From the NCBI GenBank assembly GCA_963971425.1, contig OZ020518.1, positions 3,236,263-3,300,262 on the forward strand: DNA of 64,000 nt. The letters are read 5' to 3'. This DNA is from Bryoerythrophyllum caledonicum (lineage: Eukaryota > Streptophyta > Bryopsida > Pottiales > Pottiaceae). Under the pieces are notes generated by a model that worked only from the letters and a program-made list of their open reading frames with translations, searched no databases and had not been told where the DNA came from. Positions 870 through 26,152 of this stretch are shown here, one piece after another. Within the stretch, counting starts at the first letter, position 1. Every line of letters begins with the position of its first letter. A program made the translations under genes and the position numbers.

Positions 870-2305
870 TCTTAAGTGACTTCCAAGGTGAAAAGGAGGT
901 TCCGACATCCATGCTAGACAAATCGCAAAATTTATCAATTTTATTGACTTGGATTTGTAGTGATTTAAGTTTACCTACTATAGCGGCAAGGTCATCGACG
1001 TAGGTGGTCGAGTTAATGGTGACTTGTGATGCTCCAAAGGTGTAACTGGCATTTTACCTTCTCATCCACCTTGTATGGTTCCACGTTGAATAGGGATGGG
1101 ACAGGTTGTTCCAAAATATTCTCCAACGTATGAGGTGGACAATTGAGAGTAGATCTTTCCATCTAGTGCAAGTGCGTTGGCCAGGTACCCGAGGTCAGAC
1201 ATAATTGCTAGTAATCTTGCATGGTTAATAGATTCAAATGCATTTTTGAAATCAATATATAAAATATATATGTCTTGGATTGATAATTGTGTGTCTTCTA
1301 GTGCGGCTATTATGGTTTGGAGTTGTCTGGCCGTACTTCTTTCCGCACGAAAGTCTTCTTGGCTGTCGTGTAAGATTTGGTGTTTTTTTCCATATGAGGA
1401 TAATGTGGATGTGAATGTAAATGTGCTTGTGAAGAGTTTAGAGATGGTGTTGGTTAAGGCAATTGGTCTATGGTTGGGAAGCATTGAGTAATCACCTTCT
1501 TTAAATATTAATATTGTAAAACTAGTTTTTGATGAGGCTGGATTTTGTTTTATTTGTAGTAGTGAGAGAAAAATAGGGAGAGAAGTTCATGGAATCTTGG
1601 GGGCATTAGTTTAAATATAGAGTTTGGAATGCGTCTCGCCCTAAGGCTTTATTGTTCCCAAGATTTTTGAGGCATATATCGTATTTGGCTCGGTTAAAGT
1701 AAGTGCGTAGTGGGATTTGTGGTTCACCACATTTATCTACAATGAAGCCATCCAGGTCATGCCATGGATATTGTCTTACCGCACATGTATATGGAGGTGG
1801 GTGGTCTAATGAATAGTTACATGTAGATACAATAGGTCTATTGCTTTTTGTTTGTTGGTAATATATCTCATTTGGAATGTATTCAGAGCTAGTTAAGATG
1901 ATGTTATATTGGTTAATGATCCAATCTAGCGGTGGAGATTCATTGTTTTGAAGACTCTTCTATTAAGTTTCTTTGGACTAGTATCATATAATTGTCTGAA
2001 TTTAGAGATGGATTTTTTAATATTCTCTCTAGTATACTTGGTAGTTATTTTTCTAGCTTGTTTCATGGCCTCATTTGCAATTAATGCAATATTATGTAAC
2101 CATTCATATTATGATGTGTGGGGAGGTGGTGGAGGCAGAATTTGGATATCTTGGAGGGTTTGTACTTTTTAACAAATGGGGTGAGTGAACCATTGTGGTT
2201 TATTTTTAACAATTCAAATTGTTTTCCAAACCGTATAATAGATGGTTAAGTGTTGTTTCCACCTTTTGAGAGTTTTTGTGGTAAATAGCCTCCTTGTATA
2301 GATGC
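870..2305 (-). pseudogene. LINE reverse transcriptase domain (decayed)
   Basis: Reading the minus strand, 1484 to 1062 carries classic non-LTR reverse transcriptase motifs in order: NHRPIALTNTISKLF, a QEDFRAERSTARQLQT block, the first catalytic block YILYIDFKNAF, and RGTIQGG. After a frame change the catalytic YVDD box follows near 980-1010 (STTYVDDLAAIVGKLKSLQ), then FCDLSSMDV. The domain fades near 870, so the C-terminal third normally expected is missing. Several stops and frame changes are present, so it is not functional. Together with the endonuclease part at 2860-3896 it forms one ORF2 broken by a miniature element. The clade is uncertain; the composition is very A/C-rich on the sense strand. 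Confidence 0.85.
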
Positions 2306-2859: not shown

Positions 2860-3896
2860 TTAGTTGAGGTATGGGTGGGGCTTTGCATGTTTTCTCAAGG
2901 GTGTTGGAGATATTATTTATTAGTGTGTCTAGGGTGTTATAGGCTTCAAGCCATTGGTTTTGAGAGAGTGGGCCATTGTTTTTTAGACAGTTAATAAGGG
3001 ATCGATTTGTATAGAGTTTTCTTCAAAAAACATTGTGTTGAAATCTTGTACATTGGTTTTTGAGATGGGATTAAGTATTCGAACATTTTCTTTGTTTTGT
3101 GTTGTCGGTGTTCTATTTATAAATGTGTTGTGTGGGATATTTATTTGGATTGATGAGTGGTCTGAGTTTAGAATAGTTCTTGTTTTTGGTGTCCAAGTGT
3201 ATTGTGCTTGATTGGGGCTTTGTATTTAAAAACCGCCTATTAGACTTAAGCCTTTGTAGTCATAGTCACCTTGTCTGGAGTATCTTGTGTTTGTAGAGAT
3301 ATATGTAAAATTTAGGTTGTCTGTGAAGTCACGCCATTGTTGGTCGATGGATTGTGGCGGGGAAAATTGGTCTCCATGTTGTCTGTCAATTAGTGCAACG
3401 TCTCGATTAAAATCACCACATAGTAAGTATGTGTGATTTGGATTGTTGTTAATTTGAGTGGTTATAGTGTTTTTGATGTCTGTGATGAATCTAATGTCTT
3501 TTGGGTGGGATGGCATGTACATGTGAAGTATAAGCCATGGTTGAAGGGGTTGATTATTAATTTTAAAAATTTGTAAGTATGGAGATATGTGCGTTGATGT
3601 AGGGATTTTGACAATGTTGCTTGGAAATGTGCAGGCTTTATGTATTAATGTTAGAAGGTCACCTCGGCCTGGTGTATATGGGTGGCGTTGTTGGATACAG
3701 CATGTGAAGGCATGAGTATTGTTAAAGAAAAGTTTATAGTTAGAAAATATTTGTTCTATGTATTTAGTAGATTTTGTGGTTGTGAGTTTGGTTTCTTGTA
3801 TGGCTATTATGGCTGGAGGAGTATTTTTGTATGTGGCGAGGTTTTGAATGCATAGGAGGGCGATGTTGAGGAATAGGACATTTCATGTTAGAATAC
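2860..3896 (-). pseudogene. LINE ORF2 start: APE-type endonuclease (decayed)
   Basis: The minus strand from about 3896 reads WNV-like (with a stop at the usual Trp), then LNIALLCIQNLATYKN, AIIAIQETKL (the conserved QETKL metal-binding glutamate motif) and LLCGDFNRDV (the GDFN motif). These are hallmarks of the apurinic endonuclease domain that opens LINE ORF2. The frame 3522 to 3226 is open for 98 codons and continues in frame upstream to about 3840. The stretch 3225-2860 encodes the linker with at least one stop. It joins the reverse transcriptase across the inserted element at 2310-2853. It is inactive. Confidence 0.85.
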
Positions 3897-4908
3897 ATGT
3901 GTTGTTTAATGTGTTTGTGTTCTGATTTAGAAGGGGGATGTATAGGGGTGGAAGGGCTGGGTGTCTATATTCTAGTGTAAGTTCAAAGCATCTCAATGTT
4001 TCTTTCATTAGTTCCACGGGAAGAAATCAAAAGTGTTGTTGTATTATGTTTTGTGTTGGTGGTGAGTTTTGATTAGGGATGAAGTTGTATAGTTTTTAAT
4101 GTATTAAATCTCTATGGTGCATAATGTCTTGGTTTTCTTCAATAAACTTTTTATATGGGTGATTAGTGTCGTTGTGCCGTTTGGGTGGGTTATCTAGGGC
4201 AGCTAGTTTGTTTAGGAGAGTGTCAATACATTGTGTTATATTAGAGTATTGAGGTGATAAAAGGTGGTTGCATTCTTTTAGGGTGGGGTGAGTGGTGATT
4301 ATTAACGCATATAGTATATGTGATGGTGGATGTATATTGTTCTGTTGGATGTAATGGGAGATATGTGAGAATGTTATTGTGAGCATTTTGTAACGTGTCT
4401 GTATTTTAGGAGGGATGCAAATGTATTAGAAATTTGTTGGTATTTGGGGTGGAGTTTTATAGTACTTAGGGTAATATATATTTTTTATCTTTTCTTATGT
4501 GTCGTGGGGTGTGTTTTTATTATGTTTGGCATGGGACATGGGTTAATTTCAATATCTCCACCATATAGTAGTAGATGTGTACAATGGATTTTTTTTGTTA
4601 CAACTAATATGTTTGTTATTTTGTTTTGGAGTTGTTTATTATTTCTTTTTTGGTATTTTTTGGTTTTGTTTTTTTATTATTATCATTAAATTAAAAGTTG
4701 CAAAGTGTATACCTTGGGTTTGTTTAATTTTTTAGGGTTTATTTTGTTGTAATTGTTTATTAAATTTTTCCGAGTAATGGTTTTGGTATGGATTTTAGTG
4801 TGTGTTTTTGTAATTGTGTATGTATTTGTGTTATGGGTGTGTATGTTAGTGGTTTTACTTGTAGTCGTGAGGGTATTTGTGTTTTCTAGATGTAGATTTG
4901 TGGTTATT
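3897..4908. other. Upstream LINE/unknown DNA, strongly strand-biased
   Basis: The plus strand is rich in G and T and very poor in C. The minus strand therefore reads as A/C-rich, Asn/Thr/Lys-rich frames, for example 4386-4096 and 4912-4683. These may be the 5' part (ORF1 or leader) of the LINE, but no motif is recognisable, and open frames are expected by chance in such composition. Confidence 0.35.
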
Positions 4909-4912
4909 TTAA

Positions 4913-5455
4913 CCCCTAAGGTACCCTGACAGTTTTACACCAAAAACACTTCAAAATTGTTGGATTCTAGTGCAATGAACAGATAAGGAAATAAAAACTT
5001 TGATTAGTTCTAGCCATAAGATCTCAATTAAAAATTATTGAGTAATATATTTTCAAAATTTCATACACTTTGACCGCAAGGATTGAATGATTATAGTGTT
5101 TGAAGTCAAGCAAATGGTTCATATTATTTTGTGCGTTCAGTGGATCAACAAACTTTGGCTTCACTTGGTGTCAAATTTTTGCCCTACATAAGGTCTAAAT
5201 CCATTACCATCTTATTAAGCATGATGTTAGTTCCTTATACACCAATTTTTAGAGGTAGAGGACGGGTGTAGCATATTCAAAACAACTATAATTTTTTCAT
5301 CAAATGTCCAATTTAGGAAAAAATTGTTTTCCCACTAAGGTCTTGGTAATGCCTTTCTATTGTAAAGGTTTCAAAGAGGACTCTTGGAAATTGACACCAT
5401 AGGAACCTAACCGAACTTTCAAAAAGCCCATTTTTGACACTTGGTCCTTTGGGGG
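4913..5455 (+). mobile_element. TTAA-flanked miniature element, copy 1 (short form)
   Basis: It starts TTAA-CCCCTAAGGTACC and ends GGTCCTTTGGGGG-TTAA. The body matches the other copies (ACACCAAAAACACTTC, TTGACCGCA, TTTTTAGAGGTAGA, GTAGCATATTC) but lacks roughly 400 bp of the middle, so it is an internally deleted copy. It is non-coding. TTAA at both ends together with CCC-type termini resembles piggyBac-class non-autonomous elements. Confidence 0.8.
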
Positions 5456-5459
5456 TTAA

Positions 5460-6400: not shown

Positions 6401-7357
6401 TTATGGGAGGTGGCTTGGACCCCGTAATGTTTTGCACATTATAAAGGTTCCTCCAACACACTCTTGGGTCTTCAACATTTGGTCCTTGAGTTTTTTGAAT
6501 TCCATGGCCTTTGCATCCGCTAGCGCCTTGGCTTCTAACCTCAATAGTTCGTTGTTTGCTTCAAAAGCCGCCGCCGAGTCTTTCATGGTGACTACATCCG
6601 TGGATGCTTGGAGCTTGAAGGCTTCCACGGTGTTGATAATTGCTTTATTGACGTTGCCAATACCGAACTCCTCAAGTTGGGCTTAAATGTGGGGCTCAAC
6701 TCTATCAATGCTCCTCCTATGAGGAGCAAAATTCACAAAGTGGCCATCTATGAGAATGGTTTTGTTTACTAAGGCCTTGTAAACTATGGAATTTGCACAC
6801 ACAACATTGACACTCCCATTGTGACGAACACGGTTATTACGGCAAAACCAAATAGAACTAATGCTATTAGCACCTAAAATCTTGTGGATAGCACTAGTAG
6901 TCTCATTAGTACTCATGAATATGGGAAGTTGGGAGAGTGTGAAGGTGAGGGCGTCATTCTTGGCCTTCATATCCTTGGTCATGCATCCTCCACCAAGAGC
7001 TTTCTTCGGTTGCATGATTTCTTGGTGCGCGATCACTTGGAGATCTTGTATCTTTTTTGCATGCTACAGAGTAGTAGACATAATGTAGGCGAAGCCTTCA
7101 TCCTTCATCTTCTCTACTCTAGTTACTTCAAATTCTTGTTCTCTCTTGAAGCTGGACTCAAAAATCTCTTTAAAGAGATGGTTAGCAGTAACACCATGGA
7201 GAATAGGGCAGAGAATTTTCACTGAGTATGTATTACATACCTTTCCCATCATGTCAACTTCATCAAGTTTGAGGATAAAGGGTCGAATTACCTTGAGGAG
7301 GAGTAGCTCGTCAAGCTCGGGTTTCAAGAGATGAAGTAAGATAAGCCTAGACCAGAC
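6401..7357 (-). pseudogene. Decayed frame, possibly LINE ORF1-like
   Basis: One minus-strand frame runs from the left end of the 13.5-kb element at about 7357 to 6401 (about 320 codons) with only two stops. It includes a segment around 6690-6840 (FVNFAPHRRSIDRVEPH, then LEEFGIGNVNKAIINTVEAF) that reminds me of the RNA-binding half of some plant and algal LINE ORF1 proteins. That is a memory-based resemblance, not a proven match. The C-terminal part is Ala/Glu/Lys-rich and probably helical (LLRLEAKALADAKAMEFKKL). The frame is cut off at the inverted repeat near 7363, and similar decayed minus-strand coding resumes beyond 20838. Confidence 0.45.
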
Positions 7358-7362
7358 ACCTT

Positions 7363-7394
7363 GAACATGCAATTAAGCAATTATGCACTTGGCC
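7363..7394 (+). repeat. Left terminal inverted repeat of 13.5-kb element
   Basis: It begins GAACATG and runs through AATTAAGCAATTATGCACTT to GGCC. It differs from the reverse complement of 20806-20837 at three positions. AAGTGCACTTGG follows at 7401-7412. Confidence 0.75.
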
Positions 7395-7396
7395 AT

Positions 7397-7984
7397 TTAA
7401 AAGTGCACTTGGGTACAACAGCGGCCATTGCGAACAAAAGTGGCAAAATTGAAAAAAATAAAAAAATAAAAAAATAAAAAATATTTTCTAAAGAAAAAAA
7501 AATGAGTTCCTGCAACAATATTACGTACAATCATGGTTGTTCATATTGGAAGCAATTTTTTGGCATTTTCAACTAATTTGTGGTGGCCCCTCGTTAATAC
7601 TAGATAAATGTGTATTTAATATAGTTTCACAATATTTCAAAGATAGATTTGAAGGATTGTAGTATATAAACAAGCGTAATTACAAAAAAACATACTTTAT
7701 GCAAGGGTTGGCAGTTGATTAAAAGATATTCTACGTAGTACATAATGCATACAATGGTGAAAACTAAATATAGATGCTTCAACCCTTAGAATATACTACT
7801 CTTACACATACACTATATATCAATTATCATACACAACTAGTATACTCTCAAAAAGGCATACTATCTACTCCATAGAATTTAGGGCTGCTTGCAAACGGTC
7901 GTCATCCATAGCTTCGGTTTGCATTGCAATATATTGTAGTATGTCAGCCTTTGCCGATTGAAGAATGCGAATCCTGCTTTCAAC
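7397..7984. other. Left non-coding end of 13.5-kb element
   Basis: About 590 bp between the inverted repeat and the end of the DUF7869-like gene. It contains an A-rich run of AAATAAAA units at 7450-7500 and otherwise unremarkable AT-rich DNA. No gene is seen. It probably holds the 3' untranslated region of the minus-strand gene and subterminal transposase-binding DNA. Confidence 0.5.
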
Positions 7985-10900
7985 CTACACTCCAAATACA
8001 TTGCGCTTTCTCCACCCGTTGGCCCCTGACATGGTTCTTTCCTGAGAGTCTACCCATGAAAAAATGCATGCATCTTTCTCTACCCAACTATGGCTCTCCC
8101 CAGATGGCTCCCATATTGAGTCCATACAATTTGCATATCGTTGTGCAGAAGACCCATGTCCATCAACAACCCCTCTTTGGATGCTGGGCCAATACCAACA
8201 AACTTTCATCTTAAGTCTCCTTCGGTTTTTTCCTTCCTCAATCACTTTCCCTACATAGAATAGTACACCGCCTTCTATTTCTGCTCTATCAACACTCAAG
8301 GCTACAAATTGTCCACAACAGATATCAGACTGTGGATTAAATGGTGGAAATGGGTCGTGATTACCTTCATACATTGCTCCTTCTTCGGTTCTTTCCTCAA
8401 CATAGTTGCGCTCTGTTCGTTGTGCCCTGCGCAGTGCTTGATTAGAGGGTCTTTCTCTGCGAGGACCAAAGTATCCTCGAGCCTCGGCATTTGGAAGCAT
8501 CGCCACTACCTGCTCTACGACATCTATCTCGTAATTTTCTTCACTTGTACCATCCATTACATCCAAAGATGTAGTCTCTGTAGGTACGGTGTTGGAGAAC
8601 TCTGAAGGCCAAAACGGTGAGGAACGATGCTCATTGCTACGATCTTTGTGTGGAAATTCAGCTAAATAGAGATTTAATCTTTCAGCCTCTACTTTTGCCT
8701 CACGATTCTTGTCCTCATGCTGCAATCTTTAAATCCACCTTTGTATATATACAATGAAGTCATCCAACGCCTTCAACTCCCGTGCGTCCGCTCCAAATAC
8801 TTCCACAAACGATGGTCGCTCATCCCTACTTGGCAACAACCTCAAAGTTTTCGTCCCTGCCTCCGGTCCCCATGGATCCTTGCAATAATGCTTGTGTTGT
8901 ACTCGTACTTCACGAGTCCCTTCTCGATTGTCCATATAGAATCGCATGTGGTGCGGAAATGTTATGCCCACGAATGAATCCTGGTCTGTCAGTAAGTGAG
9001 GAGTTATGAACAATTTCCAATCCCATACATTCTCTAGCAGCCGGGTGCTAACAAATGCCTCTGTAGGAGATGTTCCTTGTTCTATAAGACTCATCATTTC
9101 CTTCAACGAGTCCACGTCCGACCTCTTCAACGTATTTGATACACAACTGAAGCGTTGATCAATATCTTCGTGTGTATGGCTCATTATAAGAAAAGATAGT
9201 TCCACCTCCTGAAAAAACCCCAATCCCACCAATGTAGCACATAGAGCAAACATATAAATGTTTTTGTTCTCGCGTGTGCAGTTGTCCGCCTGGATTCGCA
9301 ATGTTGGTGGCAAAAAGCCCTTCCTCCGCAGCACATCTCCTATCACGTACAACAATGTACTCACGACTTGGTTGCTATCGTGTTTGTGGTGAGCTCCAAA
9401 CCACACGTCGCAATATAAACCAATACCATGTACAAGAGCACCACACAAAATGGGTCTTCACAAACCGGTGTTCAATATTCTTCACAGTCTGCCGCATCCT
9501 CGGTACCATGGTCGTATTTTGGTCCATGCCATCCACTATGATGCACATGTACAACTCAGGGCTAATATAACACGACCTCTTGAATATCCAATAATGCCTA
9601 CGTTCTTCCATCTGGTTGCGTAGATGCAACATAAACAACTCCTTTATCTTTATTCTTGCATCCGCATTGGTGGTTTCCTCCATGGCACATTTATACTCCC
9701 AACAATGATAACACTTTGAAAATCTCGAGAATGGAGGTACCTGAACGAGGGGATACTTGATGCACCACATCCTCCGGAACGAACTCATAGAAATGGTTTC
9801 GCCATTACAAATTCTCTTGACCTCCTCGTTCACGTAATTGAATACATCAAATTTGGATGTATTCATAGGAAGGAGAATGAGAGGCACCACTTCGTTGTCA
9901 CTCTTACGGCGAATACAACGATGAGGTTGATGACAACCAGCTTCATCCACAAACGATTTAAAGCAAGCCTCTGCTGCAAACATCCTAGTGTTCTCTCTGA
10001 TCGAATCTGAAAGGGTATTGCCGTGAATCGATGTCACTCTTCCATATATTGAACAATCCTTCTTCAATTACTTAAAGCGCCTCTGTGAATATCCAACCCC
10101 AAGAGCGTAGGAAGCATTGCAAACTTCTTTCCCATCTAACTTTGTTACAGACTTGTCTCGACGAGTTCCTTCCGTCCTTGTCTAAAAAGAAACCAGCATC
10201 TGTCTCATCCACGTACTTCGAACTGAAAACTCATTACCCCATGCATTATATCGCATGTCCAATAGATACCTTACTGGAACGTCCCTCAAACAATTGCGTT
10301 TGCATCTTCCTTGTTCCATTGCAATTTGCACGCTTCTAAGCGATACCTTAGCTGGTGCAGCTTCGGTCAATGATGGCTCCCTTGAATCTCTCCTTCTCCT
10401 ATTCTGCATAGAATAGGGACGATGTGTTGGTCTAACATAAGCAAATCCATCTACATGAGGCAAATCTTGGATGTTTGATTGAGAAACGGTGAATTTTCAT
10501 CTATGGCGTTTGAAGCATGACTACTGCGTCGAGACCTCTCCGTAGATCCTGGTGTGTTGATGAACACAAAAAAATCAAATTTTGGGGCCATCACTTGTGT
10601 AGGCGATATCTGTGATCCATTGTCACCATGGACACCTGTGATATCAGGTTCTATAGCCACTACACGTAGCAAAGACCGATGCCAATGAATGATCAAGCCC
10701 ACACACATGCCAAGGCGTTCTCCTACAATCTCTCCGGTCCAATGCAATGCATCATCTACCCTAGTGATACGCACCGCCACCTCGAATGGGAACAACTTCG
10801 ACCCATTCAATTCCATGCTACTTTTGAATGCATGCTCCCTGGTTGCTAACCACATCCCCTGCTTCATAAAGCAGTTCTACTGCCCTTTCCAATTCAAATG

Positions 10901-10990
10901 TCATGATGCCATCAGATCTCTGTTGAATTTGCCTTGCACGTGCTGCTCGTACTATTCGGGCCCCCACAGAGCTATTGGAATGCATATTAT
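7985..10990 (-). pseudogene. DUF7869-type transposase-like protein (decayed)
   Basis: The minus strand gives, from about 10990, an Arg/Gln-rich N-terminus, a middle with CKRNCLRDVPVRYLLDMRYN and AWGNEF, then SIHGNTLSDS, LILLPMNTSKFDVF, a CYHCWEYK zinc-like pair, IVDGMDQNTTMVPRMRQ, HHKHDSNQVV, LRIQADNCTRENKN, and HTHEDIDQRFS. A C-terminal module follows (GQFVALSVDRAEIEGG, VCWYWP). I recognise this order from the uncharacterised DUF7869 family common in algae, bryophytes, ferns and invertebrates. The three acidic blocks (DGMDQ, ADN, HEDID) would suit an RNase H-like D-D-E/D nuclease, which is my inference. About three stops, mostly Gln- or Lys-like sites, and at least three frame changes are present (near 9448, near 10463, and further upstream). 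No introns are seen. It is the best candidate transposase of the 13.5-kb element. Confidence 0.8.
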
Positions 10991-11265
10991 CCTTTCAGAT
11001 GTGTGGCCGTATCGAAGGAGTCTAAATCGTGCGGCTCTCCATTATCACTATTGATAAAATAGGATCATTTTGGCTGCACAGTAGTCAAAATACATGTACT
11101 AATTGTTAACCTTAAAAGCACCATTCATCTAATAAAAGATATGTTTCTAAACACATATTTATTGTTCAAAATATGATGATGATATTGGACCTTTTGATAA
11201 AACAACTTTAAAATGGAAAAAATTAAGAATTTGTAGAGCATAAACTCCTTGCACGGAGTCTTTAA

Positions 11266-12146
11266 CCCTGAAGGTACAATGACAGTGTTACACCAAAAAC
11301 ACTTCAAAATTGTTGGATTCGAGTGCAATGAACAAAACAAGAAATGAAAACTATTATTTCTAGTTTTGACCGTAGGATCTCGATTAAGACTTATTAAGTA
11401 ATATATATACAAAAAATTCATAAACTTTGACCGTACGGATTGAAAGATAATAGTGTTTGAAGTCAAGCATATGGTTCATATTCTTCCCTGCGTGCTGTGG
11501 ATCAGCAAACTTTGACTTCACTTGGTATCTAATTTTGACACTACAGAAGGTCGAAATCCACAACCATCTTGTTAATGATGATGTTAGTTCCTTGTACACC
11601 AATTTTTAGAGGTAGAGAACAGGTTTAGCATATTCAAAACAACCGTGCAAGGAGTGGAAGTTCGGAATTTGTTAATTCTAACTGTAATCTTTTGTGAACT
11701 TAATTTGTTTGAGATTGGTAGTCCAAATGGTCAATAAGAAGGTTTACACCACATATTGTTGTGGAAAAAATAAAAAAATGAAAAATAAAAAGATATCTAG
11801 GTTTTATTTGGAAAACAAGAAGTTTATTTGGTACCTTGCCCAACAACGAGTGACAATGTGTGAAAATGTTTGACTTAGATTGATATGTTATTTTTCACTA
11901 AAGACAAAAACTTATTTTGACATCATTAAGGAAAATAATATTACTTGTGAGTACTGAAAATCTCACATTCAACAAAGTGTCCTAGCAATAGATTTTGGAC
12001 GTGCCCGACTTGCCTGCTCTCCCCACTAAAGGCTTCGTAATGCCTTTCTATAGTGTAATTTTCAATAATGAATGTTAGAAATTGACACCATAGGAACTTG
12101 ACCGAACTTTCAAGAAGCCCATTTTTGACACTTGATCCTTTAGGGG
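11266..12146 (+). mobile_element. TTAA-flanked miniature element, nested copy 2
   Basis: 881 bp between TTAA at 11262-11265 and TTAA at 12147-12150. The left end is CCCTGAAGGTAC and the right end GATCCTTTAGGGG. It has the shared interior words (ACACCAAAAACACTTC, CCGTAGGATCTCGATTAAGAC, GTTTGAAGTCAAGC). It has no protein-coding capacity. It lies within an older minus-oriented copy. Confidence 0.85.
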
Positions 12147-12273
12147 TTAAATATGCTACACCCGTTTTGCATTCCTAAACATTGGTATAAAATAGAACTA
12201 ATATCATTTCTGACAAGATGATGATAAATCTAGATCATGTGTGATGCAATCTTTTGAATCCAAGTGAACTTAA

Positions 12274-13218
12274 CCCCTAAGGTACCGTGACAGTTTTACA
12301 CCAAATACACTTCAAAATTAATGGATTCTAGTGCAATGAACAAAGAGGGTAACAAAAACTTTTATTTTTAGTTCTGACCGTAGGATCTCAAATAAGACTT
12401 ATTAAGTAATACAAGTACAAAATTTCATAAACTTTGACCGCATGGATTGAACGATTATAGTGTTTGAAGTCAAGCAAATGGTTCATTTTCTTCCCTGTGT
12501 TTAGTGGATCAGCAGACTTTGACTTCAGTTGGTGTCAAAAAATTTCACTACACAAGGTCTAAATCCATTACCATCTTGTTAAGCATGATGTTAGCTCCTT
12601 ACACACCAATTTTTAGAGGTAGAGACAGGGTGTAGCATATTCAAAACAAGTGTGCAAGGAGTGGAGGCTCGAAATTTGTTAATTCACACTTTAATTTTTT
12701 TTGAACTTAATATGTTTTCGATTGATAATCCGAATGGTTAATAAGAAGGTTTACATTACATATTGTTGTGGCAAAAATAAAAAGTGAAAAATACGAAGAT
12801 CTCTAGGTTTTATGTGGAAAAGAAGAAGTTTTTTTGGTACCTTGCCCGACAATGAGTGACAATGTGTGAAAATGTTTGACTTGGGTTGGTATGCTATTTT
12901 TCACTAAAGACAAGAACTATTTTTTGACAACATGAAGGGAAATAATATAACTTGCGAGTACTGAAAATCACACTTTCAATAGAGTGTCCCATCAAAAGTT
13001 TTTGGAGGTGCCCGAGATGCCCGCCCTCCCCATTTAAAATTCAAAACCCTATAACTTTTTCATCAAATGTCCAATTTACGAAAAAATTGTTTTTCCACTG
13101 AGCTCTTGGTAATGTCTTTCAATAGTAAAAACTTCAAAGTAGAATGTTGGAAATTGACACCATAGGAACCTGACCAAACTTTCAAGAAGCCCTTTTTGGA
13201 CACTTGGTCCTTTAGGGG
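12274..13218 (+). mobile_element. TTAA-flanked miniature element, nested copy 3 (full length)
   Basis: 945 bp between TTAA at 12270-12273 and TTAA at 13219-13222. The ends are CCCCTAAGGTACC and GGTCCTTTAGGGG. It is one of the most complete copies and is non-coding. It interrupts the same older copy as the 11266-12146 insertion. Confidence 0.88.
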
Positions 13219-13290
13219 TTAAACGAAGGGAATCCAATGAACCTAGGAAAGAAAATGAACCATGTTGTCTACTTGCTATAATTGACACCA

Positions 13291-14205
13291 TTGGAACTTG
13301 TTACAATTGCTAATAAAAGAAAGGATTTGTACATCCACGTAATCGTTATTCTACAAACAACATAGTACAAAAGCTCAATCAACACATAATATTAAAGTTG
13401 TATAAAAATAAATGTTTACCTCAAAATACGTTGCTGGTGTTAGTGGTACACGCACTGGTGCTTGATGGCGTTCAACATTTAGTCACCATTCCATCGTTGT
13501 TGTTGAACATGTTTTTCAACTCTTCCCACTTTACCTGCAACACATGCATAAAATTTATATGGTAAACTATGTGATAAAATCTCCTAATTATCTTCGTATT
13601 ACATATAGCCCAAAATTTTAATATAATATGTAAAAAGTTTAAACAAAAGGAGAAACAAAGCAAAAGGTCCAAAGTTCTAAAGTCAAACTTTGACTAGTAA
13701 ACTTGGGGCACAAGGTTCCAACATGGATATAAGGTTTCTATGCAAGTCTAGAGGTCTCTTCCCTTCCCAGTTTGGAAGGTGAGCTCTCTTGCAATCGAAA
13801 TCTCAAGGCCTTGTGCATTTTTCTTCATTCACTAATTTCTGTCAACTTTGTATGTACTGTGTAGATTGGAGGACATTTGCACATCGAGGAGATTTTTGCA
13901 AATTTGGTAAGCTTCGTTTCAATTCTGAATACGAGGGAACTCCAGGGTTAGGTTCAAGATGATTAAAGTGAGTTACAGTTCCAATAGAGAGTAGTACCAA
14001 TAGTGGAGCACACAAATTAGAACATGAACTTGAGTATGTTTAAAATTGCAATTACAACGAAGGTTTAATGTTCACACAACAGTCAACAACTAGAGAGTGT
14101 AGGTTTTGTACTACTGAAACACTGACACCAAAACCATACAAAACTCAAGTCAAGAGATATCTCATAGAATAGCACTAAGTCCTGAGTATAGCACATCAGC
14201 ACACT
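13291..14205. other. Non-coding interior of 13.5-kb element
   Basis: AT-rich sequence with no frame over 70 codons that looks like a protein. Some stretches (TTTACCTGCAACACATGC near 13535) look like splice-type signals, but I cannot tie them to an exon. Confidence 0.4.
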
Positions 14206-14210
14206 ACCTG

Positions 14211-14305
14211 AAACCCTAGCCGCCGCAACCAAAACCTAGCCGCCACAACTAAACCCTAGATGCCGCAACCAAACCCTAGCTGCCGCAACCAAACCCTAGC
14301 CACCG
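14211..14305. repeat. Short tandem repeat, ACCCTAGCCGCCGCAACCAA unit
   Basis: About five imperfect copies of a roughly 20-bp unit (CCCTAGCCGCCGCAACCAAA and variants). The unit contains CCCTA but is not the plant telomere heptamer. Confidence 0.75.
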
Positions 14306-14349
14306 TTCCCATGGAGTTCGCACAATACCTCACAAAATAACTGTAGACT

Positions 14350-15110
14350 GGAGGTGTGCGCGCGCACACCCCCCAACTGCTGTTGGTCCTCCATCCATCG
14401 AAAAAAGTCCTGGCCTCCATGATGCATCGCGTGCCACCTCTTGACAACGGTAAAAAAATCTTCGTGGGCACCTGATCTTCAAGTTAAGGCGCCATAACAT
14501 CAAGAATGTCGCGCAACCCTCGCTGCGCCGCAGCCCTCCCGGACACCCTAGCTGCGGCGCAGGCTTGGCGCTATGCGCGGCGCAGGCGCTCTGCGGCGCT
14601 GCACAGGGAGGGTAAGGCGCGGCTCTTCACATCTCCTCTCTCTTCACATCTACTTCATATCGGCCTCTATCACATCTTTTTCACCATTCCTCACACCTTC
14701 TCTGACACCCAAACCATTATCCTCCTCTCTCCCAAACCCTAGCCACCCACACATTCTCTCCCTCACACCTCCCCTCCATTCCTCTCCCTCACAACTCTTC
14801 TCCCCTCACAAGACCTTCTCTCACAAACCCACAAGCCTCTCACTCTTCCAAACCCTCTCTCACTCTCACAGCCTCCCTCACAGCCACTGCCAGGGGTGTG
14901 CGCACGCACACCCCTCCTAGGACTACCCAAGTTTGCAAAGGATTGATACCCTTTGTTGAAACCCTCAAAACCAAACCCTAATCCAAACCCTAAGTTGATA
15001 CCCTGACTATATACCCTGGTTGATAACCAGATGTGATACCCAAGAAAACATTCCTTGATGGTGATACCCTAGATATTGATACCCGAAGTACCTTGGTCCA
15101 TAAAAGATGT
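14350..15110. other. GC/CT-rich block with two palindromes
   Basis: A perfect 18-bp palindrome GGTGTGCGCGCGCACACC lies at 14353-14370, and GGGGTGTGCG-CA-CGCACACCCC at 14893-14914. Between them are a GC-rich piece (14500-14620) and a long CT/CTC-rich tract (14630-14890). From 14930 to 15100 the words GATACCC and AACCCTAA recur. The frames at 14506-14920 are low-complexity His/Ser/Pro products and not convincing genes. Position and composition would suit a promoter/leader in the gap between the two divergent genes, but that is inference. Confidence 0.5.
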
Positions 15111-15114
15111 TGAG

Positions 15115-16222
15115 AATATCTCAACCAAATATCGTTAAAAATGATTATTTTAGTGCAATTAGCAAGGGAAAAAAAAAACTATTTTTTTATAGGTTTAACC
15201 GTAGGATCTGAATCATGACTTATTAAGTAATATGCTCACAAAATTTCATAAAGTTTCACCGCACGGATTGAAAGATTACAATGTTTGAAGTAGTGAAAAG
15301 GCTCATTTTCTTCCCTGCGATTTCTGGATCAGCAAACTTTGACTTCAATTGGTGTCACATTTTTGCACTATAAAAGGTCTCAATTAATTACCATAATGTT
15401 AAGCATGATGTTAATTTTTTATGTACTAATTTTTAGAGTTAGAAAAGGGGTGTAGCATATTCAAAAAATTGTGCAATGAGTGGAGGTTCAAAAATTCTCA
15501 ATTCACGTTTTGTTTTTTTGTGAATTTGATATCGTTTGAAATGAGAATCCAAATGGTCAATACAAAGGTTTACATCAAATAATGTCATAGGAAAAATTAA
15601 AAGTGAATCATACGAAGATCTCAAAGTTTTATGTGGAAAGGTAGAAGTTTTTTGGTACTCTCCTCGAAAATGTGTGACAATGTGTGAAAATAATTGATTT
15701 GGATTAATATGCTATTTTTCCTATAAGAACTAACAACATGCTTAACATGATGGTATTGGATTTAGATCTTGTGTAGTGCAAAAGTTTTTAGAGGTAGACA
15801 AGGGGTGTAGCATATTCAAAAAAAATGTGAAATGAGTGGGGTTTCAAAAATTCTCAATTCACGTTATGTTTTTTGGTGAATTTGATATCGTTTGAAATGA
15901 GAATCCAAATGGTCAATACAAAGGTTTACACCAAATAATGTCGTAGGAAAAAATAAAAGTGGATCATACGAAGATCTCAAAGTTTTATGTGGAACGGTAG
16001 AAGTTTTTTGGTACTCTCCTCGAAAATGTGTGACAATGTGTGAAAATAATTGATTTGGATTAATATGCTATTTTTCCTATAAGAACTATCAACATGCTTA
16101 ACATGATGGTATTGGATTTAGATCTTGTGTAGTGCAAAAGTTTTTAGAGGTAGACAAGGGGTGTAGCATATTCAAAAAAATTGTGCAATGAGTGGTGGTT
16201 CAAAAATTCTTATTCCATACTA
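15115..16222 (+). repeat. Truncated TTAA-family copy with 356-bp tandem duplication
   Basis: Interior words of the TTAA family (AACCGTAGGATCTGAATCATGACTT, CACCGCACGGATTG) begin near 15125 without a clean left end. From 15430 a block beginning TTTTTAGAG is repeated at 15785 and again at 16141, giving two near-identical units of about 356 bp plus a stub. The array stops about 50 bp before the start of the 16273-20238 gene. It is non-coding. Confidence 0.8.
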
Positions 16223-16272
16223 ATAGTGACTATCGTTTTGTAATGATATACAGGTTCTTTGAGTGTTGCGTT

Positions 16273-19200
16273 ATGGCACCACCAAATATTGATAGAATCT
16301 GGGAGAGCCATGGCTGGTGGATCGCGGAAGTGGATTAGTCGAGCGCCTTCTTATAGGTGATGGATTATCCTTTTGAGCTGGGGAAGCGTACATCGGCGTT
16401 AGGAAAGAGTTTTGGCAAAATCCAGGCAATCACTCTTCGACGTGATGATATGGTATACGTTACTTGCGAAGTGGGTCCAGGTCAATCGGAGGTGAAGACT
16501 TCTCTTTCGAAGAAGTTGCTTCTTGCACCTGTCCTTTTGAATCTTCTTCAAAATCCAGGTTAGGTGAAATTCCTCAAATCATTGCAGACGTTTTGGTTGA
16601 ACATCTCTCTTGCGGTAGGTACTACTAGACACAACAACGTCTTAGCCTATTTAGCGTTATCACCGGAGATGGTGCTGAAGGCTAAGAAGATTATGGAGGA
16701 ATATATTAGATATGAAGCATTTCAGGAGAGGGATCCATCACGTGCGACAACTCGAGCCCCACCAGCGGAACCAGAAGAAATAGAAGTTTATCGAATTCTT
16801 GCTGAGCCGTTGCAACTAGATTGGCGACCACTGGAGGGGGGAAGGGGAAGTGGAGGCCAACATCCCACCACAACTTCTGAGGTACAGACATTATCGAATC
16901 ATCCATTAACGAGTAGACGTCCTACAAAGAGGCCACGGCGTGTGGAGAGTGATGTAGCTTCTGGTTCAAGAGAAGGCCCATCAAGTTTGGACCCTAGCAG
17001 GAGGAGGTTGATTGGGAGAAGTGTAAGATCCGGTGGCAGGGTTCCAAGGTCGGGGCTCAGGACGTCCGATGGTCATCGTAGGGTCCTTGCATCTACACCG
17101 AGAGATTTAGCTGATTTGTCAGCCATGGCGCCGGAGGAAGAAGCATTTCACAACCTATTTGACAGTGTACCAGAGGATTTTGAAGACAATGCGGAGATAC
17201 CACAGGATGTTCCAACTTCGATGTATTTAAAAGCACCAGTGCCTACATCGGAGGAGATTGCAAAAGGATCAATGAGGGGGAATTTTGTGTTTAAGGCACA
17301 CGTAGACCGCATTGTCTCTGTGGAGAATCCGGAAACGAACCTCCGGGTTTTATCAGAGAAGAGGGTCAGAGAAGTATTTAATCGCTTAAGAGACCCTGAA
17401 TCCGCGACTCAGGTGAGTAGATTGGTACTTCGACCGATCAGATACATCGTGCATACTACCACTGATAATGGTGTCGTTGAGAAGGAGGAGCTGTCATTTC
17501 CGTTGGTAGGAACTGCACGAGAGTTTGAGCGCATGTTCATTACACACGGGAGTGCTTTTGCACAGAGTGCTATGGGATCCCAATATTCTTGGCTTGAAGA
17601 TCATATCATTTGAGAACCGGTGGATGGGCAACACATAGTAGCAGCTTGTAAGTTTGCACAGCAACAGTGGAGAAATGGTACCATACCTTTAAATGAGTAC
17701 CTGGACACGTTCGAGAGGCGGGAGGCCTCTTTTGTGGTGTATGATGATCGTCGCTATTACATTGAGAAGTCTACGCGGATCAACGTGGCGGAATTCCAGA
17801 GACAGTCATATTCTACCATGGAGGAGGATTTGAAGAAGCTCCGTCAGATTTGGAATCTATACGGGAGGCCTGACAGCACACTATGTGCGGACGATGCACG
17901 CAGGGCTGTTGATTTGGTGAGTGCGGCAAGTGCAGTGCATAAGTTGCCCAAGGGGGATGGAGTTGTCACGGTGAAGAGGTTGGCCAAAAATATGGAAGAT
18001 CTGACCAATCATGCATGGAATCCGAGCAATGACTGCTTTGAAGCTATCATTCAAGTATGCAAGGACTACGAAGACGGCATTCTCTTTTACAGCAAGGAGA
18101 AAGAAGACAAGTGGAAGAACATGGCGAGGAAGAAAGAGTTGGATCCAAATGTGGACGTACGACCAACAAGAAAGGAGATGACCCAGAATTGGTTGAGGTC
18201 GTTAGGTAGAGTTCCGACTCCATATTATCTTCGGTTGGCAAAGTCTGCTGCAGTGAAGCCGGTGACGGATGATGGAGTAAGACCTCGTCAAGCATACTAC
18301 TTCGACAATGTAAAAGACGAGAATCCACATCCTCGTATGATTGCCGGTGTTTGTGATCGATATCAGAGACGAGAAGCTGTGATCAATTCCATTCGTTGGT
18401 TGATGGTAGAGAACAAGGAAAGTACACCTGATTCCATGGAGGAGTTCTTTCGTATTCGTGTAGGGAAGTGTTTTCCAAGAAGTAACGCACAACTTGATAC
18501 CTTTGGAAATCTTTTGAATGCTACCAAGAAAAAAACTTGGACTGCTCCTATGCGGGGGAAGGTGTCTAAGCTGGAAGACATAGGCTACCTCATCCCTCCT
18601 TCCATTAGGTTTCATTATGGTAACATTGTAGCAGGGGGGCGTGGATACATTGGACTGTCCGTGGATGTGGGAAGACAGGCTACTGCTAATTGGGAATGGC
18701 AGATGGAAGTCAAGAGGCCAGGCCAAAACGACACAGAGAATCTTCTTCCGGTACGGTGTAGAAGAGGGTTATTCCGCACCGACTACATAGAGTTGGAGAA
18801 ACCATGTTTGTGGGTGATTGATTGTCGACGTGGCGGTGGGAGGCATGGAGATGGTCATTGGGGAGACGCCCAGTTATCCGCAACTTTTGCACAACTGTCA
18901 TTATGAATGACAAATATTGAACGATGGAACGTCATCTTCTTGTTACCAGCGGCCGTGTATGCCAACGAAGAGTTTTTCACGAAGGTGAAGCTTCCAGAGG
19001 GATGTACTATGCGACGTAGATGTTGGGCGTTTGATCCGAACTCGGTTATTCCCTATGCTCTCGATTTTACAGAGAATGGGCGTCTGGAGCAAGTAGTACA
19101 ACGGATTGGCGATGTTGTGATTTGTATGCAGCACCTTGTGGGTACATCTCATGGCTCGAACTATGTTTTTGGAGACGTTCCACTTCCTCTTGTTTTCTTG

Positions 19201-20238
19201 GATCACTGGAGTGAGGCACGCCAACCCTCTGAAGTTGATTCACTTGAGAGATCTCCATCAGAGCTGGCAAGACTAGTGGGCTCTTACTTGCCCCGCGGTT
19301 GGGGTTTAGTGGCGTGTAACATATCTACGGCCATTCCCACGATCCTTGAAGGAGATTTCCAAGGATCTGAGGTTTTTATCATTGACGATTGTACAGACAG
19401 AGTTTCATTCTTGTACAATGAGTTGTTCGACAATTTCCAAGGACAACTGTTGGTTAGGACTGGTGGAACAAGGACTGGTTGCAACATCGAACTTGAGACC
19501 GAAAAGGCGGTTGGTGAAGTGAGGAATGAAGACGACAATGAAGATGGAGGTGATTTACATGAAAGATTGCCACGTTCAGGTACCACTGAAGATTTGTCAT
19601 CTCGTAGTGGTTCAGACGCAGATGTAGATGGAGTGAACCAGTCTTCTCCAAGAGAGAGGATTCCATCAACGCAGCGGGCGGTGGGAGATACTTCAGGGGA
19701 GACGTCTGCAATATCTACAGAGAAGATGCAAGATATCTGTGTAGTGGATGTTGGTTTGGCGGCAGGGGCAGGAGGGGGGCGTACATTTGATGGTCCTAGG
19801 CTGGAGATGGAGGAAGAACAATTGGACTCATTAGAATTTTTTTCGGTGTAGAAGAGGGTTCCACAGCCTTCGATGCCTTCTCAATTAGAGCCTATATTGG
19901 AGACACAAGAGACGTTTGGAGGTACTCAGAGTGATACCGGACCAGGTTTGGCTTCCGTTCCAAGATCTAGCGTATCCGAGGACATCATTGCATTTCAGGG
20001 GGCCTTCTCGTTAGAGCGAGAGATGTCCTTCAATCTAGAGGATGGCTTTTTCTACAATGATGATAGGATAAGGCATACGCGGGAGGGTGTTCCTGGCAAT
20101 TACCGACATGTTGAGTGTGCGTCCATTGGCATTGAAGATGTGGGAGATCGTCCAGTGCAGGATCATGAACTGTCCGCTATGGTAGGTAGCGTCATTGGAC
20201 ACGTGGAGGGAGTCGTTCCGCCAGAAGATGAGCTCTGA
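16273..20238 (+). pseudogene. Unrecognised ~1300-aa gene with ParB/DGQH-like motif (decayed)
   Basis: One frame stays open over about 1320 codons with only about six stops, from ATG at 16273 (MAPPNIDRIWESHGWW) to 20238. No intron is needed. An N-terminal domain is followed by a basic, low-complexity linker (TSRRPTKRPRRVESD, RRRLIGRSVRSGGRVPRSG). Next is a domain with LRVLSEKRVREVFNRLRD and VDGQHIVAACKFAQQQW; the DGQH-x-x-A motif is like the ParB/DndB DGQHR nuclease-type fold. A globular region follows (WVIDCRRGGG, HWGDAQLSATFAQL, WNVIFLLPAAVYANEEFF) that faintly resembles a degenerate methyltransferase, then an acidic Ser-rich tail. I cannot name the family. It is coding-like: long frame, balanced codons, GC above its surroundings. 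It is the divergent partner of the DUF7869-like gene. Confidence 0.6.
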
Positions 20239-20805
20239 TCCCTGGAGCTATATACTATAGTAGAGCATGCACGCAGTTTAGGTGGCAAATACGTTAGTAT
20301 AATGCAGTTTGAGATGTGTCTATCGTTCGGTCGGTGGTATATATTTATATATTGGGTGGTCCATATGATATGTTTGATTTTAGAATTCCTCAGCAATAGT
20401 GTGGAATTGCTTGATTATGTATGTTTTTGCATTATAAAATACAGTGAGGTACTTTACACTGTCTTAGGAAATTGCATATATATTTTTGTATCTCTTACAC
20501 ATTGTATTTGTAGTGCACTACTCTAAAATCCTATAATAACTCATAACAAATTTATAATCTCTTTGGGCACATGATTATAATTTTGTAGCAGGATTTGTAA
20601 ACTAGTTTAGAAATCATATATTTTCTAAAAAAAGGTAGAAAATGTAAAAAATATATTATTGATATGAACATGAAGATGCCAAGGTATGACACGACAAACA
20701 CCAAAAAAATTTGACAAAAAACATACTAAACTTTTGCCAAATTTTGATTTAAAAAAAAATTATGAGCAAATAACTTGCGGCTTTCTACCAGCAACCAGTG
20801 CACTT
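20239..20805. other. Right non-coding end of 13.5-kb element
   Basis: About 570 bp of AT-rich DNA between the end of the unknown gene and the right inverted repeat. No gene is seen. It mirrors the 590-bp non-coding segment at the other end. Confidence 0.5.
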
Positions 20806-20837
20806 GGCTAAGTGCATAATTGCTTAATTGTGTGTTC
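20806..20837 (-). repeat. Right terminal inverted repeat of 13.5-kb element
   Basis: The reverse complement begins GAACACA and runs through AATTAAGCAATTATGCACTT to AGCC. AAGTGCACTGG follows inward (20794-20804 region). It matches 7363-7394 at 29 of 32 positions. Confidence 0.75.
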
Positions 20838-20939
20838 TTTTTGTCCTCCACTTTGTTTAAAACTTAAGCAGTGAATGGAGATAGGTTCAATGATTTTCTT
20901 ACCGAGAAGAATGTCTATGACTTTGAGGCGATTGACAAC

Positions 20940-21874
20940 CATTGCATAGACATCATCGCACATGGTTAGATAGTAGGAAGCTTAAAATGAATAGCAATTT
21001 GAAAGTCTAGAGCCAAACATGTGCTTGATTTCATAGGGATGTTTGTTGGTACTTGCGTGAGGTTGTAGTGTTGTCCACCAAGGCCTCCTGCTCCTCTTGA
21101 TTGTCGGTATAGGATCTATGGGATGTATAGAAAGGCTATCCTTGCCTTTTAAACTTCCCATGCCTCTTTTTCCTTAAAGTCCCTATTTAATATGTCCTCA
21201 ACTGTCTCTCTACTGAAGAGCTCTTTGAATCCTTCATCTATTGCCATCTCTTCTATCACCTAGAAACCAAGCCAGAATCTCAAGCCACAAGCCTTAGGGA
21301 CACAGATGAGAGCCGTGCTTACATCTTTAGTCAGCTCTTCAATAATAGGTTTTTGCTTCTTGCTGGAAAAGGTTTCTGCTTCACGTTGCTTCTCTACTTG
21401 CTCCACTTGAAGCCGCTTGAGGCTTTCCGTCCGAGACTCAATGTCCATATAGTCAACATAATTGAGAGTTTTCTTCACAATACTTGTATCCATATCTACA
21501 CCCGCCAAGCTTACACCACTTACAAGTTATAATTTTAAAGCATGAGGTTTAAGAGACTTACGTGGGTAGCGATCCAGATATTGCAATGTAAGCACTAGGT
21601 CATTGAGACATGTTTGGGCGTTGCTATGTGAGATAGTAGTGTTGTTGCAATAGGTCGATCGGCCAAGAAGGGGAGATTGTTGGATCAAGGGAGGGTCATA
21701 AGAGTTGCTCGCACGAGTCGCTGGAGGTCTCTCAAGCCATTGTGGGTAGGGATTTGTGCCTCCCCGCATTGCTTCAGGCATTGTGCTCGGGTCCTCTTCC
21801 TCTTGTGTTGCTTTGGGCATTGTGTTATGTCTTTGCTCTTCTTCTCCTCTGTGCTCCTCTACTCTTCCTATCAA
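20940..21874 (-). pseudogene. Decayed unidentified frame right of the 13.5-kb element
   Basis: A single minus-strand frame from 21874 toward 20940 is readable with several stops. It contains a Pro-rich start (PQWLERPPATRASNSYDPP), a charged helical segment (LKRLQVEQVEKQREAETF) and FKELFSRETVEDILNRDFKE. I do not recognise it. Because it points into the right end of the 13.5-kb element, and the frame at 7357-6401 continues outward from the left end on the same strand, the two may be halves of one gene or retroelement split by the insertion. That is not proven. Confidence 0.4.
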
Positions 21875-24290: not shown

Positions 24291-24298
24291 GTCGTTAA

Positions 24299-25228
24299 TC
24301 CCTAAAGGCCCAAGGCATTTTCACACCAAAAACACTTCAAAATTGCTTGTTCTAGGGCAAGGAAAACAAAGAATTTTATTTCTACACCTATTCGTAGGAT
24401 CAAAATTAAAGCTTACTAAGTAACGTCCTCACAAAATTTCATAAACTTTGACCGCATAGATTGAAAGATTGTAGTGTATGAAGTAGCGAAAATGGTTCAT
24501 TTTCTTCCTTGCCTCAAGTGGATCAACAAACTTTGACTTCACTTGGTTTGAAATTTTTGCACTATTTAAGGTCTATATTCTTTACCATCTTGTTAAGCAT
24601 GAAGTTAGTTCCTTGATCACCAATTTTTAGAGGTAAAAGAAGGGTGTAACATATTCAAAACAATTGTGTGAGGAGTAGAGGTTCAAAAATTACCAATTTT
24701 CGTTTTATTTTTTTATGAACTAAATGTGTTTTAGAATGAAAATCCAAACGGTTGATAAGAAGGTTTACAACACATCTTGTAGAAGAAAAAATAAAATTTA
24801 TGAAATATAAAGATCTCTAAATTTTCGGTGGAAAAAGAGAAGTTTTTTTAGTACCTTGCCCGACAATTTGTGACAATGTATAAAAATGTTTGACTTGGGT
24901 AAATGTGCTATTTTTCACTAAAGACAATTTTTTTTGACAATATGAAAGAAAATGATATTACTTGCCATTATTGAAAATCTCACATTTGAATGAGTATTCT
25001 ACTAAATTTTTTTGGAGTTGCTTGATGTGCCCGCTCTCTCCATAAAAACTTCAAAACCCTATAACTTTTGCATTGAATGTCATATTTCAGAAAAAAATTG
25101 TATGCACACAAAGCTTTTAGTAATGTCCATTTACAGTTAAAATTTCAAAAAGAAACGTTGTAAATTTACACTATAGGAACTTGCCCAAATTCTTAGAGTC
25201 CCCGGAGGAGACTCTTGGGCCTTTGGGG
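24299..25228 (+). mobile_element. TTAA-flanked miniature element, copy 4
   Basis: 930 bp between TTAA at 24295-24298 and 25229-25232. The left end is TCCCTAAAGGCCCAAGG and the right end CTTGGGCCTTTGGGG, a good inverted repeat. The interior is diverged from the copies at 11-13 kb but collinear (ACACCAAAAACACTTC, CTTGCCCGACAAT). It is non-coding. Confidence 0.85.
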
Positions 25229-25234
25229 TTAAAG

Positions 25235-25857: not shown

Positions 25858-26152
25858 TAGAAATCTTTTTACATTGATGCATTGGTTGTAGAGAGAATGT
25901 CGTTCTTTTCATTGGTATGCGATTTGGTTTCTTTTTAGAAGCTTCTTATGGTGCATTTGAGGTTTCATGAGCCACGCCAATGGATATGTTTATTTAACCC
26001 GTAAGTGTTTATAAGAACAAACATATCCATTGGGCATGACTCATGAAACTTCAAATGCACCATAAGAAGCATCGACGAAGGAACCAAATTGCATACCAAT
26101 GAAAAGAACAACATTCTCCCTTCAACCAACGGAGCAATGTAGGAAAAAGGTT
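25858..26152. repeat. Long imperfect hairpin (about 130-bp arms)
   Basis: The left arm (about 25858-25991) and right arm (about 26020-26152) are inverted copies with roughly 85-90% matching. Paired words include TTCATTGGTATGC, GCTTCTTATGGTGCATTTGA and TTTCATGAG, and the loop is about 25-30 bp. Transcribed on either strand it would form one long stem. It lies about 1.1 kb upstream of the histidine kinase start. It could be a foldback miniature element or a young small-RNA precursor; there are no target duplications to decide. Confidence 0.8.

What the first reader, a model, noticed from the sequence alone, without database searches (positions are those of the whole stretch)
7363..20837. Possible undescribed large DNA transposon pairing a DUF7869-type gene with a ParB/DGQH-like giant gene
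Seen: a 32-bp inverted repeat (29/32) 13.5 kb apart with matching subterminal AAGTGCACT motifs, enclosing two divergent intronless genes that end at almost equal distance from each terminus. Known: DUF7869 proteins are abundant and multicopy in many eukaryotes and have no established function. Inferred: the DUF7869-like protein is the transposase, and the second gene is an accessory protein travelling with it.
Basis: partly seen in the sequence, partly recalled or inferred. Interest (0 to 1): 0.85.

Follow-up and report, generated by a model that had tools for sequence, protein, structure and literature searches.

The report
Decayed large two-gene DNA transposon
This 13.5-kb stretch looks like the decayed remains of a large cut-and-paste DNA transposon whose uncharacterised DUF7869 gene has the layout of a transposase; large transposons that carry an extra big gene are already known from some algae.

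Summary
The inverted repeat is real: 30 of 33 bases at 7363-7395 and 20805-20837; about 1e-5 such pairs are expected by chance in 64 kb. It encloses two outward-reading genes, both broken. Gene 1 (minus) holds PF25273/DUF7869 at E=7e-47. Its VDGMDQ, QADN..ENKN and HTHEDID motifs recur in two other loci. A weak model places them in RNase H-like order; none of its fold matches is significant, though 23 of the 50 PDB rows shown are Argonautes. Gene 2 (plus, 1321 codons, six internal stops) matches no family; its 'ParB' label rests on one DGQH motif and failed profile tests. About 3 kb between the genes is a dispersed repeat found at four other places in the window, probably nested. Joining the flanks restores a 146-codon frame, modest evidence of insertion. 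Best reading: an inactive Sola1-like or unclassified DDD-type transposon. A 21.5-kb Sola1 element of Ectocarpus with a ParB-plus-methyltransferase gene opposite its transposase is published (PMC12477816). No host genome was held, so copy number, empty sites and co-occurrence stay untested.

The parts
7363..7395 (+). left terminal inverted repeat (33 bp, 30 of 33 matching the right arm)
20805..20837 (-). right terminal inverted repeat
7401..7410 (.). subterminal palindrome AAGTGCACTT, left
20797..20805 (.). subterminal AGTGCACTT, right
7865..10950 (-). gene 1, broken transposase-like gene; upstream limit approximate; two frame changes and six to eight in-frame stops
8918..9467 (-). DUF7869 domain (PF25273), E=7e-47 in one frame, 1e-46 with one frameshift read through; limits converted by me from protein positions
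9531..9533 (-). candidate catalytic acid 1 (D of VDGMDQ)
9284..9286 (-). candidate catalytic acid 2 (D of QADNC..ENKN)
9158..9166 (-). candidate catalytic acid 3 (one of the two D residues of HTHEDID)
7985..8728 (-). C-terminal part of gene 1, same frame beyond an in-frame TAA; no Pfam match
16273..20238 (+). gene 2, 1321 codons in one frame with 6 internal stops (4 TAG, 2 TGA); no family match
17623..17634 (+). DGQH motif, the only basis of the ParB label
11258..13223 (+). two head-to-tail copies of a dispersed repeat of about 1 kb, probably nested later
15124..16221 (+). third, rearranged copy of the same dispersed repeat (356-bp internal tandem)
20838..20981 (-). right-flank half of a possible interrupted older open frame (48 codons)
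7067..7362 (-). left-flank half of the same possible open frame (98 codons)

Best explanation
The stretch 7363-20837 is an old, inactive copy of a large cut-and-paste DNA transposon. Gene 1 encoded the transposase: its DUF7869 domain is inferred to be an RNase H-like catalytic core using three acidic residues (D-D-D). It would bind the 33-bp ends and the adjacent AAGTGCACT motifs, cut the element out and paste it elsewhere. Gene 2 is inferred to be an accessory protein that travelled with it. The element entered an older sequence, later took in copies of a dispersed 1-kb repeat between its two genes, and decayed. Shown: the ends, the DUF7869 match, the conserved D motifs, the two broken outward-reading genes, the dispersed repeat. 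Inferred: catalytic activity, binding of the ends, mobility, the role of gene 2, and the order of events.
For: 30/33 inverted ends with a shared inner motif. DUF7869 at 7e-47 and 1e-46 read through one frameshift. [VS]DGM-x-Q, QADN or QIDGG followed by ENxN, and HTHEDID are shared with L013 and L015; the candidate acids are D87, D169 and D209 or D211 of the read-through protein (motif positions, codons checked). The model has strand 81-85 just before motif 1, helix 140-157, strand 163-169 ending at motif 2, helix 176-189, strand 195-201, and helix 207-213 over motif 3, an order that fits an RNase H-like core (the comparison is from recalled knowledge). 23 of the 50 PDB rows shown are named Argonaute or PIWI proteins, many of them repeats of the same protein. 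Gene 2 is a coding frame: 7 stops including its own, against 63 and 82 in the other forward frames. Flanks joined with 2 bp removed give a 146-codon frame. The coding parts and flanks have no other copy in the window, apart from the inverted ends themselves.
Against: No clean target duplication: TT/TT only, or CTTG/CTTT (3 of 4) if each end is one base shorter. The model is poor: mean pLDDT 47, pTM 0.46, 4 sequences, and residues 87-141, where strands 2 and 3 should be, are below 50. Of its 403 PDB matches at E up to 10 none reaches 0.001; the best is 0.17, to a cytochrome supercomplex chain. The viral library gave 125 matches, none at 0.001. No sequence match to any solved structure. No second copy of the element could be sought. 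Of L013 and L015, only L013 has an inverted pair around its DUF7869 gene, 16 nt at 81% (762-777 and 4947-4962), which may be chance; L015's contig ends close to its gene. The joined-flank frame is only moderate evidence: of 5000 random joins of real window sequence, 680 reached 146 codons and 182 of these had at least 43 codons on each side; of 2000 dinucleotide shuffles of the flanks, 6 and 2 did.
Confidence: 0.72

Rival explanations
1. The element belongs to the known Sola superfamily, group Sola1: DUF7869 is the Sola1 DDD transposase and the element is an ordinary, if large, member with an accessory gene, like Sola1-1 of Ectocarpus. This refines the best explanation rather than opposing it.
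For: A review gives Sola as DDD transposases with 4-bp target duplications, TIRs of 11-1124 bp, some elements over 15 kb, and presence in a moss (PMC10741241, passages). Here: three conserved D motifs, a 33-bp TIR and 13.5 kb, a possible 4-bp duplication at 3 of 4. Ectocarpus Sola1-1 is 21.5 kb with an accessory gene opposite the transposase.
Against: No Sola sequence was available, so homology is untested. The partner gene here has no ParB match and no [DNS]PP[YFW] motif. The exact duplication is 2 bp, not 4.
Confidence: 0.42
2. The inverted repeat belongs to a DNA transposon of another superfamily, and the DUF7869 gene is cargo, not the transposase.
For: DUF7869 occurs in no paper of the library; the fold evidence is below significance.
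Against: No other transposase family was found in the gene 1 and gene 2 pieces scanned; the middle, 11050-16270, has no stop-to-stop frame over 122 residues and was not scanned. The D motifs are conserved in two other loci.
Confidence: 0.12
3. The inverted repeat is coincidental, and the two genes are unrelated decayed genes lying side by side.
For: No clear duplication, no second copy available, and 3 of 1405 random window pairs reached the same match count.
Against: Analytic expectation about 1e-5; the seeded scan traces the other long-distance matches to one dispersed repeat; shared inner motif and similar spacing of the gene ends, 502 and 599 bp.
Confidence: 0.08

Closest known systems
Sola1-1_Ec32, giant Sola1 DNA transposon of Ectocarpus (PMC12477816, section 5 read)
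   Same: Large DNA transposon; transposase gene and a long accessory gene on opposite strands. The paper says that transposase genes of giant families there are frequently predicted to be pseudogenised.
   Different: Its partner is described as ParB-like plus DNA methyltransferase (1104 aa). Here ParB is not detected by profile and no [DNS]PP[YFW] motif is present. Transposase homology not tested.
Pfam PF25273 (DUF7869)
   Same: Gene 1 matches at 159.9 bits against a cut-off of 26.
   Different: Pfam gives no function; here the domain lies between inverted repeats and carries transposase-like D motifs.
KDZ and EnSpm/CACTA giant transposons
   Same: Generally more than 10 kb, extra genes, nested insertions (PMC12477816).
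   Different: Ends here begin GAACA, not CACTA or CACTG, and no 3-bp duplication is exact; no Pfam match to such transposases in the pieces scanned. KDZ was not tested further.

Membership tests
Sola superfamily | transposase homologous to Sola transposases | not testable with these tools
   No Sola sequences or profiles found in the libraries used; Pfam names only DUF7869
Sola superfamily | DDD catalytic triad | tested here: inconclusive
   Three conserved D motifs shared with L013 and L015; catalytic role inferred, weak model
Sola superfamily | 4-bp target site duplication | tested here: inconclusive
   CTTG/CTTT, 3 of 4, only if each end is one base shorter
Sola superfamily | TIR of 11-1124 bp | tested here: met
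   33 bp
PF25273 DUF7869 | score above the curated cut-off | tested here: met
   159.9 bits against 26
ParB_N / ParB-like | profile match | tested here: not met
   No Pfam match at E up to 10. hhalign of a 209-residue piece to 5 bacterial ParB sequences (5 of 18 fetched loci were usable) aligned 21 columns away from the DGQH motif, and 32 of 200 shuffles scored as well
DGQHR family TIGR03187 | profile match | tested here: not met
   NCBIfam scan: no match at E up to 1
DNA methyltransferase partner of Sola1-1_Ec32 | [DNS]PP[YFW] catalytic motif (recalled, from no call) | tested here: not met
   0 occurrences in the 1321-residue reading
PIF/Harbinger | 3-bp TAA/TTA duplication and a Plant_tran or DDE_Tnp_4 transposase | tested here: not met
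   CTT/TTT; no such match in the gene 1 pieces, while another gene of the window matches Plant_tran
CACTA/EnSpm | ends CACTA/CACTG, 3-bp duplication | tested here: not met
   Ends begin GAACA; no exact 3-bp duplication
hAT / Mutator | 8-bp / 7-12-bp duplication | tested here: not met
   With the ends as given, 1 of 7, 1 of 8, 0 of 9, 2 of 10 and 3 of 11 bases agree; shifting both ends by up to 6 bases gave no 5-9 bp duplication with at most one mismatch. 12 bp not tested; a decayed duplication is not excluded

The most novel reading that the evidence does not exclude
DUF7869 is the catalytic domain of an unrecognised DDD-type transposase superfamily, distinct from Sola, with 2-bp TT target duplications, whose large members regularly carry the gene-2 protein as a conserved companion.
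Probability: 0.25. Interest if true: 0.7.

Novelty: new member of a known kind. Interest (0 to 1): 0.45.

Why it matters
It would also add a case to the giant transposons with large accessory genes that the Ectocarpus paper reports for algae. The source organism was not identified; a neighbouring Plant_tran transposase suggests a plant.

Tried and rejected
ParB as the identity of gene 2: rejected as unproven. Methyltransferase domain in gene 2: no motif; the single-sequence model has mean pLDDT 33.6, so I did not search with it. Reassigned stop codons instead of decay: not tested by a tool; gene 2 holds both TAG and TGA as internal stops, so I kept decay. The repeats between the genes as part of the transposon: judged unlikely, since copies lie at 4908-5459, 24291-25233, 35663-36082 and 51197-51760.

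Searches for relatives: viral contigs with the DUF7869 piece, a gene-2 piece, a DUF7869 motif, an L013 protein and the inner end: no relative. Phages with the DUF7869 piece and plasmids with gene 2: no match at E up to 1. Genome contigs with a pattern for GHTHED[IVM]D (the window itself has S in place of G): 15 stretches, of which 2, L015 and L013, match the DUF7869 piece by tblastn at 3e-6 and 8e-6 and PF25273 by hmmscan. Both are short contigs (6432 and 5162 bp) filed in Bacteroidetes MAGs; L015's gene is in two pieces split by a stop, so I suspect eukaryotic contamination, unproven. Two draws of 395 genomes around them, overlapping at least in part, matched only in the starting genome: 1 of 395 with the Pfam model, 1 of 395 with alignment A3. 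A gene-2 piece was not found in those 2 genomes. TIGR03187: 0 of 9 genomes. Solved structures by sequence: none for DUF7869; for a gene-2 piece one chain at E 1.1, taken as chance; none for the full reading. Rfam on the window: none at gathering score.

Papers: DUF7869 in 0 papers; other searches. Seen: PMC12477816, section 5 whole and passages; PMC10741241, passages; PMC10294476, passages. Not held: the Bostrychia genome paper. The original Sola paper and the structure of RNase H-like transposases are recalled.
Full report
What is there. The inverted repeat exists at 7363-7395 and 20805-20837, 30 of 33 bases, with AAGTGCACT within 6 bases of each arm. About 1e-5 pairs this good are expected by chance in 64 kb (independent bases). 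A seeded scan of the whole window for inverted 33-mers with at least 30 matches gave 39 rows: this pair, three rows from two close hairpins, and 35 rows within one dispersed repeat family. A cruder control was less favourable: 3 of 1405 random 400-bp pairs also reached 30/33; those three were not traced.

Gene 1 (minus strand). The frame 8729-9457 matches PF25273/DUF7869 at E=7.3e-47. The open frames 9375-10067 and 8729-9457 overlap, so the change of frame there leaves no room for an intron. Reading through it gives 353 residues with DUF7869 at 1e-46. By my reading the gene has a second frame change further upstream and six to eight in-frame stops, depending on where that change is placed (stops listed). 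Its last stop is 7865-7867, 502 bp from the left end. It is not functional. The upstream pieces and the C-terminal pieces match no Pfam family.

Relatives of gene 1. A pattern scan of genome contigs (one genome for each of 84,980 prokaryote species) found 15 stretches; two, L013 and L015, encode DUF7869. Both are short contigs in Bacteroidetes MAGs and probably eukaryotic contamination, which I did not prove. The window and these two share a C-x2-C pair, [VS]DGM-x-Q, QADN or QIDGG with ENxN, and HTHEDID. In the window protein the candidate acids are D87, D169 and D209 or D211 (motif positions; codons). L013 has one short inverted pair around its gene, 16 nt at 81%; L015's contig ends near its gene. 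So neither shows convincing terminal repeats, which is a point against or at least no help.

Fold. AlphaFold2 on four sequences gave mean pLDDT 47 and pTM 0.46. The better parts run strand (before motif 1), helix, strand (motif 2), helix, strand, helix (motif 3), as in RNase H-like transposases (recalled); residues 87-141, where two further strands should lie, are below pLDDT 50. Foldseek against the PDB gave 403 matches at E up to 10 and none at 0.001. Of the 50 rows shown, 23 are named Argonaute or PIWI proteins, whose PIWI domain has an RNase H-like fold (recalled), but many rows repeat the same protein and the best row is a cytochrome supercomplex chain at E 0.17. BFVD gave nothing significant. 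This hints at the fold and no more.

Gene 2 (plus strand). 16273-20235 is one frame of 1321 codons with six internal stops, four TAG and two TGA. The other forward frames hold 63 and 82 stops, so it was a coding gene without introns. It matches nothing in Pfam (E up to 10), PHROGs or NCBIfam (up to 1), PDB sequences (up to 10, full reading) or plasmid records (up to 1); one piece had a chance-level PDB match at E 1.1. A comparison with five bacterial ParB sequences aligned only 21 columns away from that motif, and 32 of 200 shuffles did as well. No [DNS]PP[YFW] motif is present. A single-sequence model was useless (mean pLDDT 33.6). Its role as an accessory gene is inferred from position alone.

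The middle. 11258-13223 and 15124-16221 are copies of a repeat of about 1 kb that also lies at 4908-5459, 24291-25233, 35663-36082 and 51197-51760. The simplest account is later insertion, leaving about 10 kb for the element itself. The coding parts and the flanks have no other copy in the window. Between 11050 and 16270 no stop-to-stop frame exceeds 122 residues.

The insertion site. No long duplication flanks the ends. TT/TT is exact; CTTG/CTTT matches 3 of 4 if each end is one base shorter. Joining the flanks on the minus strand with 2 bases removed gives an open frame of 146 codons, 48 before and 98 after the junction; the 4-bp reading gives the same joined sequence. For shuffled flanks, 6 of 2000 joins reached 146 codons and 2 of 2000 also had at least 43 on each side; for random joins of the real window the counts were 680 and 182 of 5000. 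So this supports insertion into an older open frame only moderately. The joined product, searched with 141 of its 146 residues, matched no family above cut-off (best E 0.089).

What is known. A 2025 paper on Ectocarpus describes giant DNA transposons and, in the 21.5-kb Sola1-1_Ec32, a 1104-residue ParB-like plus DNA methyltransferase protein on the strand opposite the transposase; [quoted passage not shown] A review gives Sola as DDD transposases with 4-bp duplications, TIRs of 11 to 1124 bp and some elements over 15 kb, present in a moss (PMC10741241, passages). The present element fits that outline, but no Sola sequence was available for comparison, and its partner gene does not show the Ectocarpus domains. 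No paper in the library mentions DUF7869.

Verdict. A decayed large DNA transposon with DUF7869 as its probable transposase (0.72). It may be Sola1 (0.42) or a superfamily not yet recognised (0.25).

Noticed in passing
window 4908-5459, 11258-13223, 15124-16221, 24291-25233, 35663-36082 (-), 51197-51760 (-): A dispersed repeat of about 1 kb, mostly 75-88% alike between places, at four sites outside the element and three copies inside it.
   Followed up: partly
window 1062-1586 (-) and 3226-3882 (-): Fragments of a LINE-type retroelement: RVT_1 at E=5.7e-7 and endonuclease matches below cut-off.
   Followed up: no
window 58815-60038 (-): PIF/Harbinger-type transposase: Plant_tran PF04827 at E=7e-54; the frame 58485-58814 seems by eye to continue it.
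   Followed up: no
window about 28887-34439 (+): Probably a split host sensor-kinase gene: HATPase_c and Response_reg matches just below cut-off in 32525-34063; the wider limits are by eye.
   Followed up: no
window 14211-14305 and 14353-14372 / 14893-14912: A 20-bp tandem array (consensus AAACCCTAGCCGCCGCAACC), and a GC-rich 20-bp inverted pair (95%) 520 bp apart that could be the ends of a small nested element.
   Followed up: no
window 25893-26118 and 55866-55955: Two long hairpins (31 of 33 matches in the best stretches).
   Followed up: no
L013 and L015: DUF7869 genes on short contigs filed in Bacteroidetes MAGs, likely eukaryotic contamination; L013 also carries a gag-like frame by eye.
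   Followed up: partly
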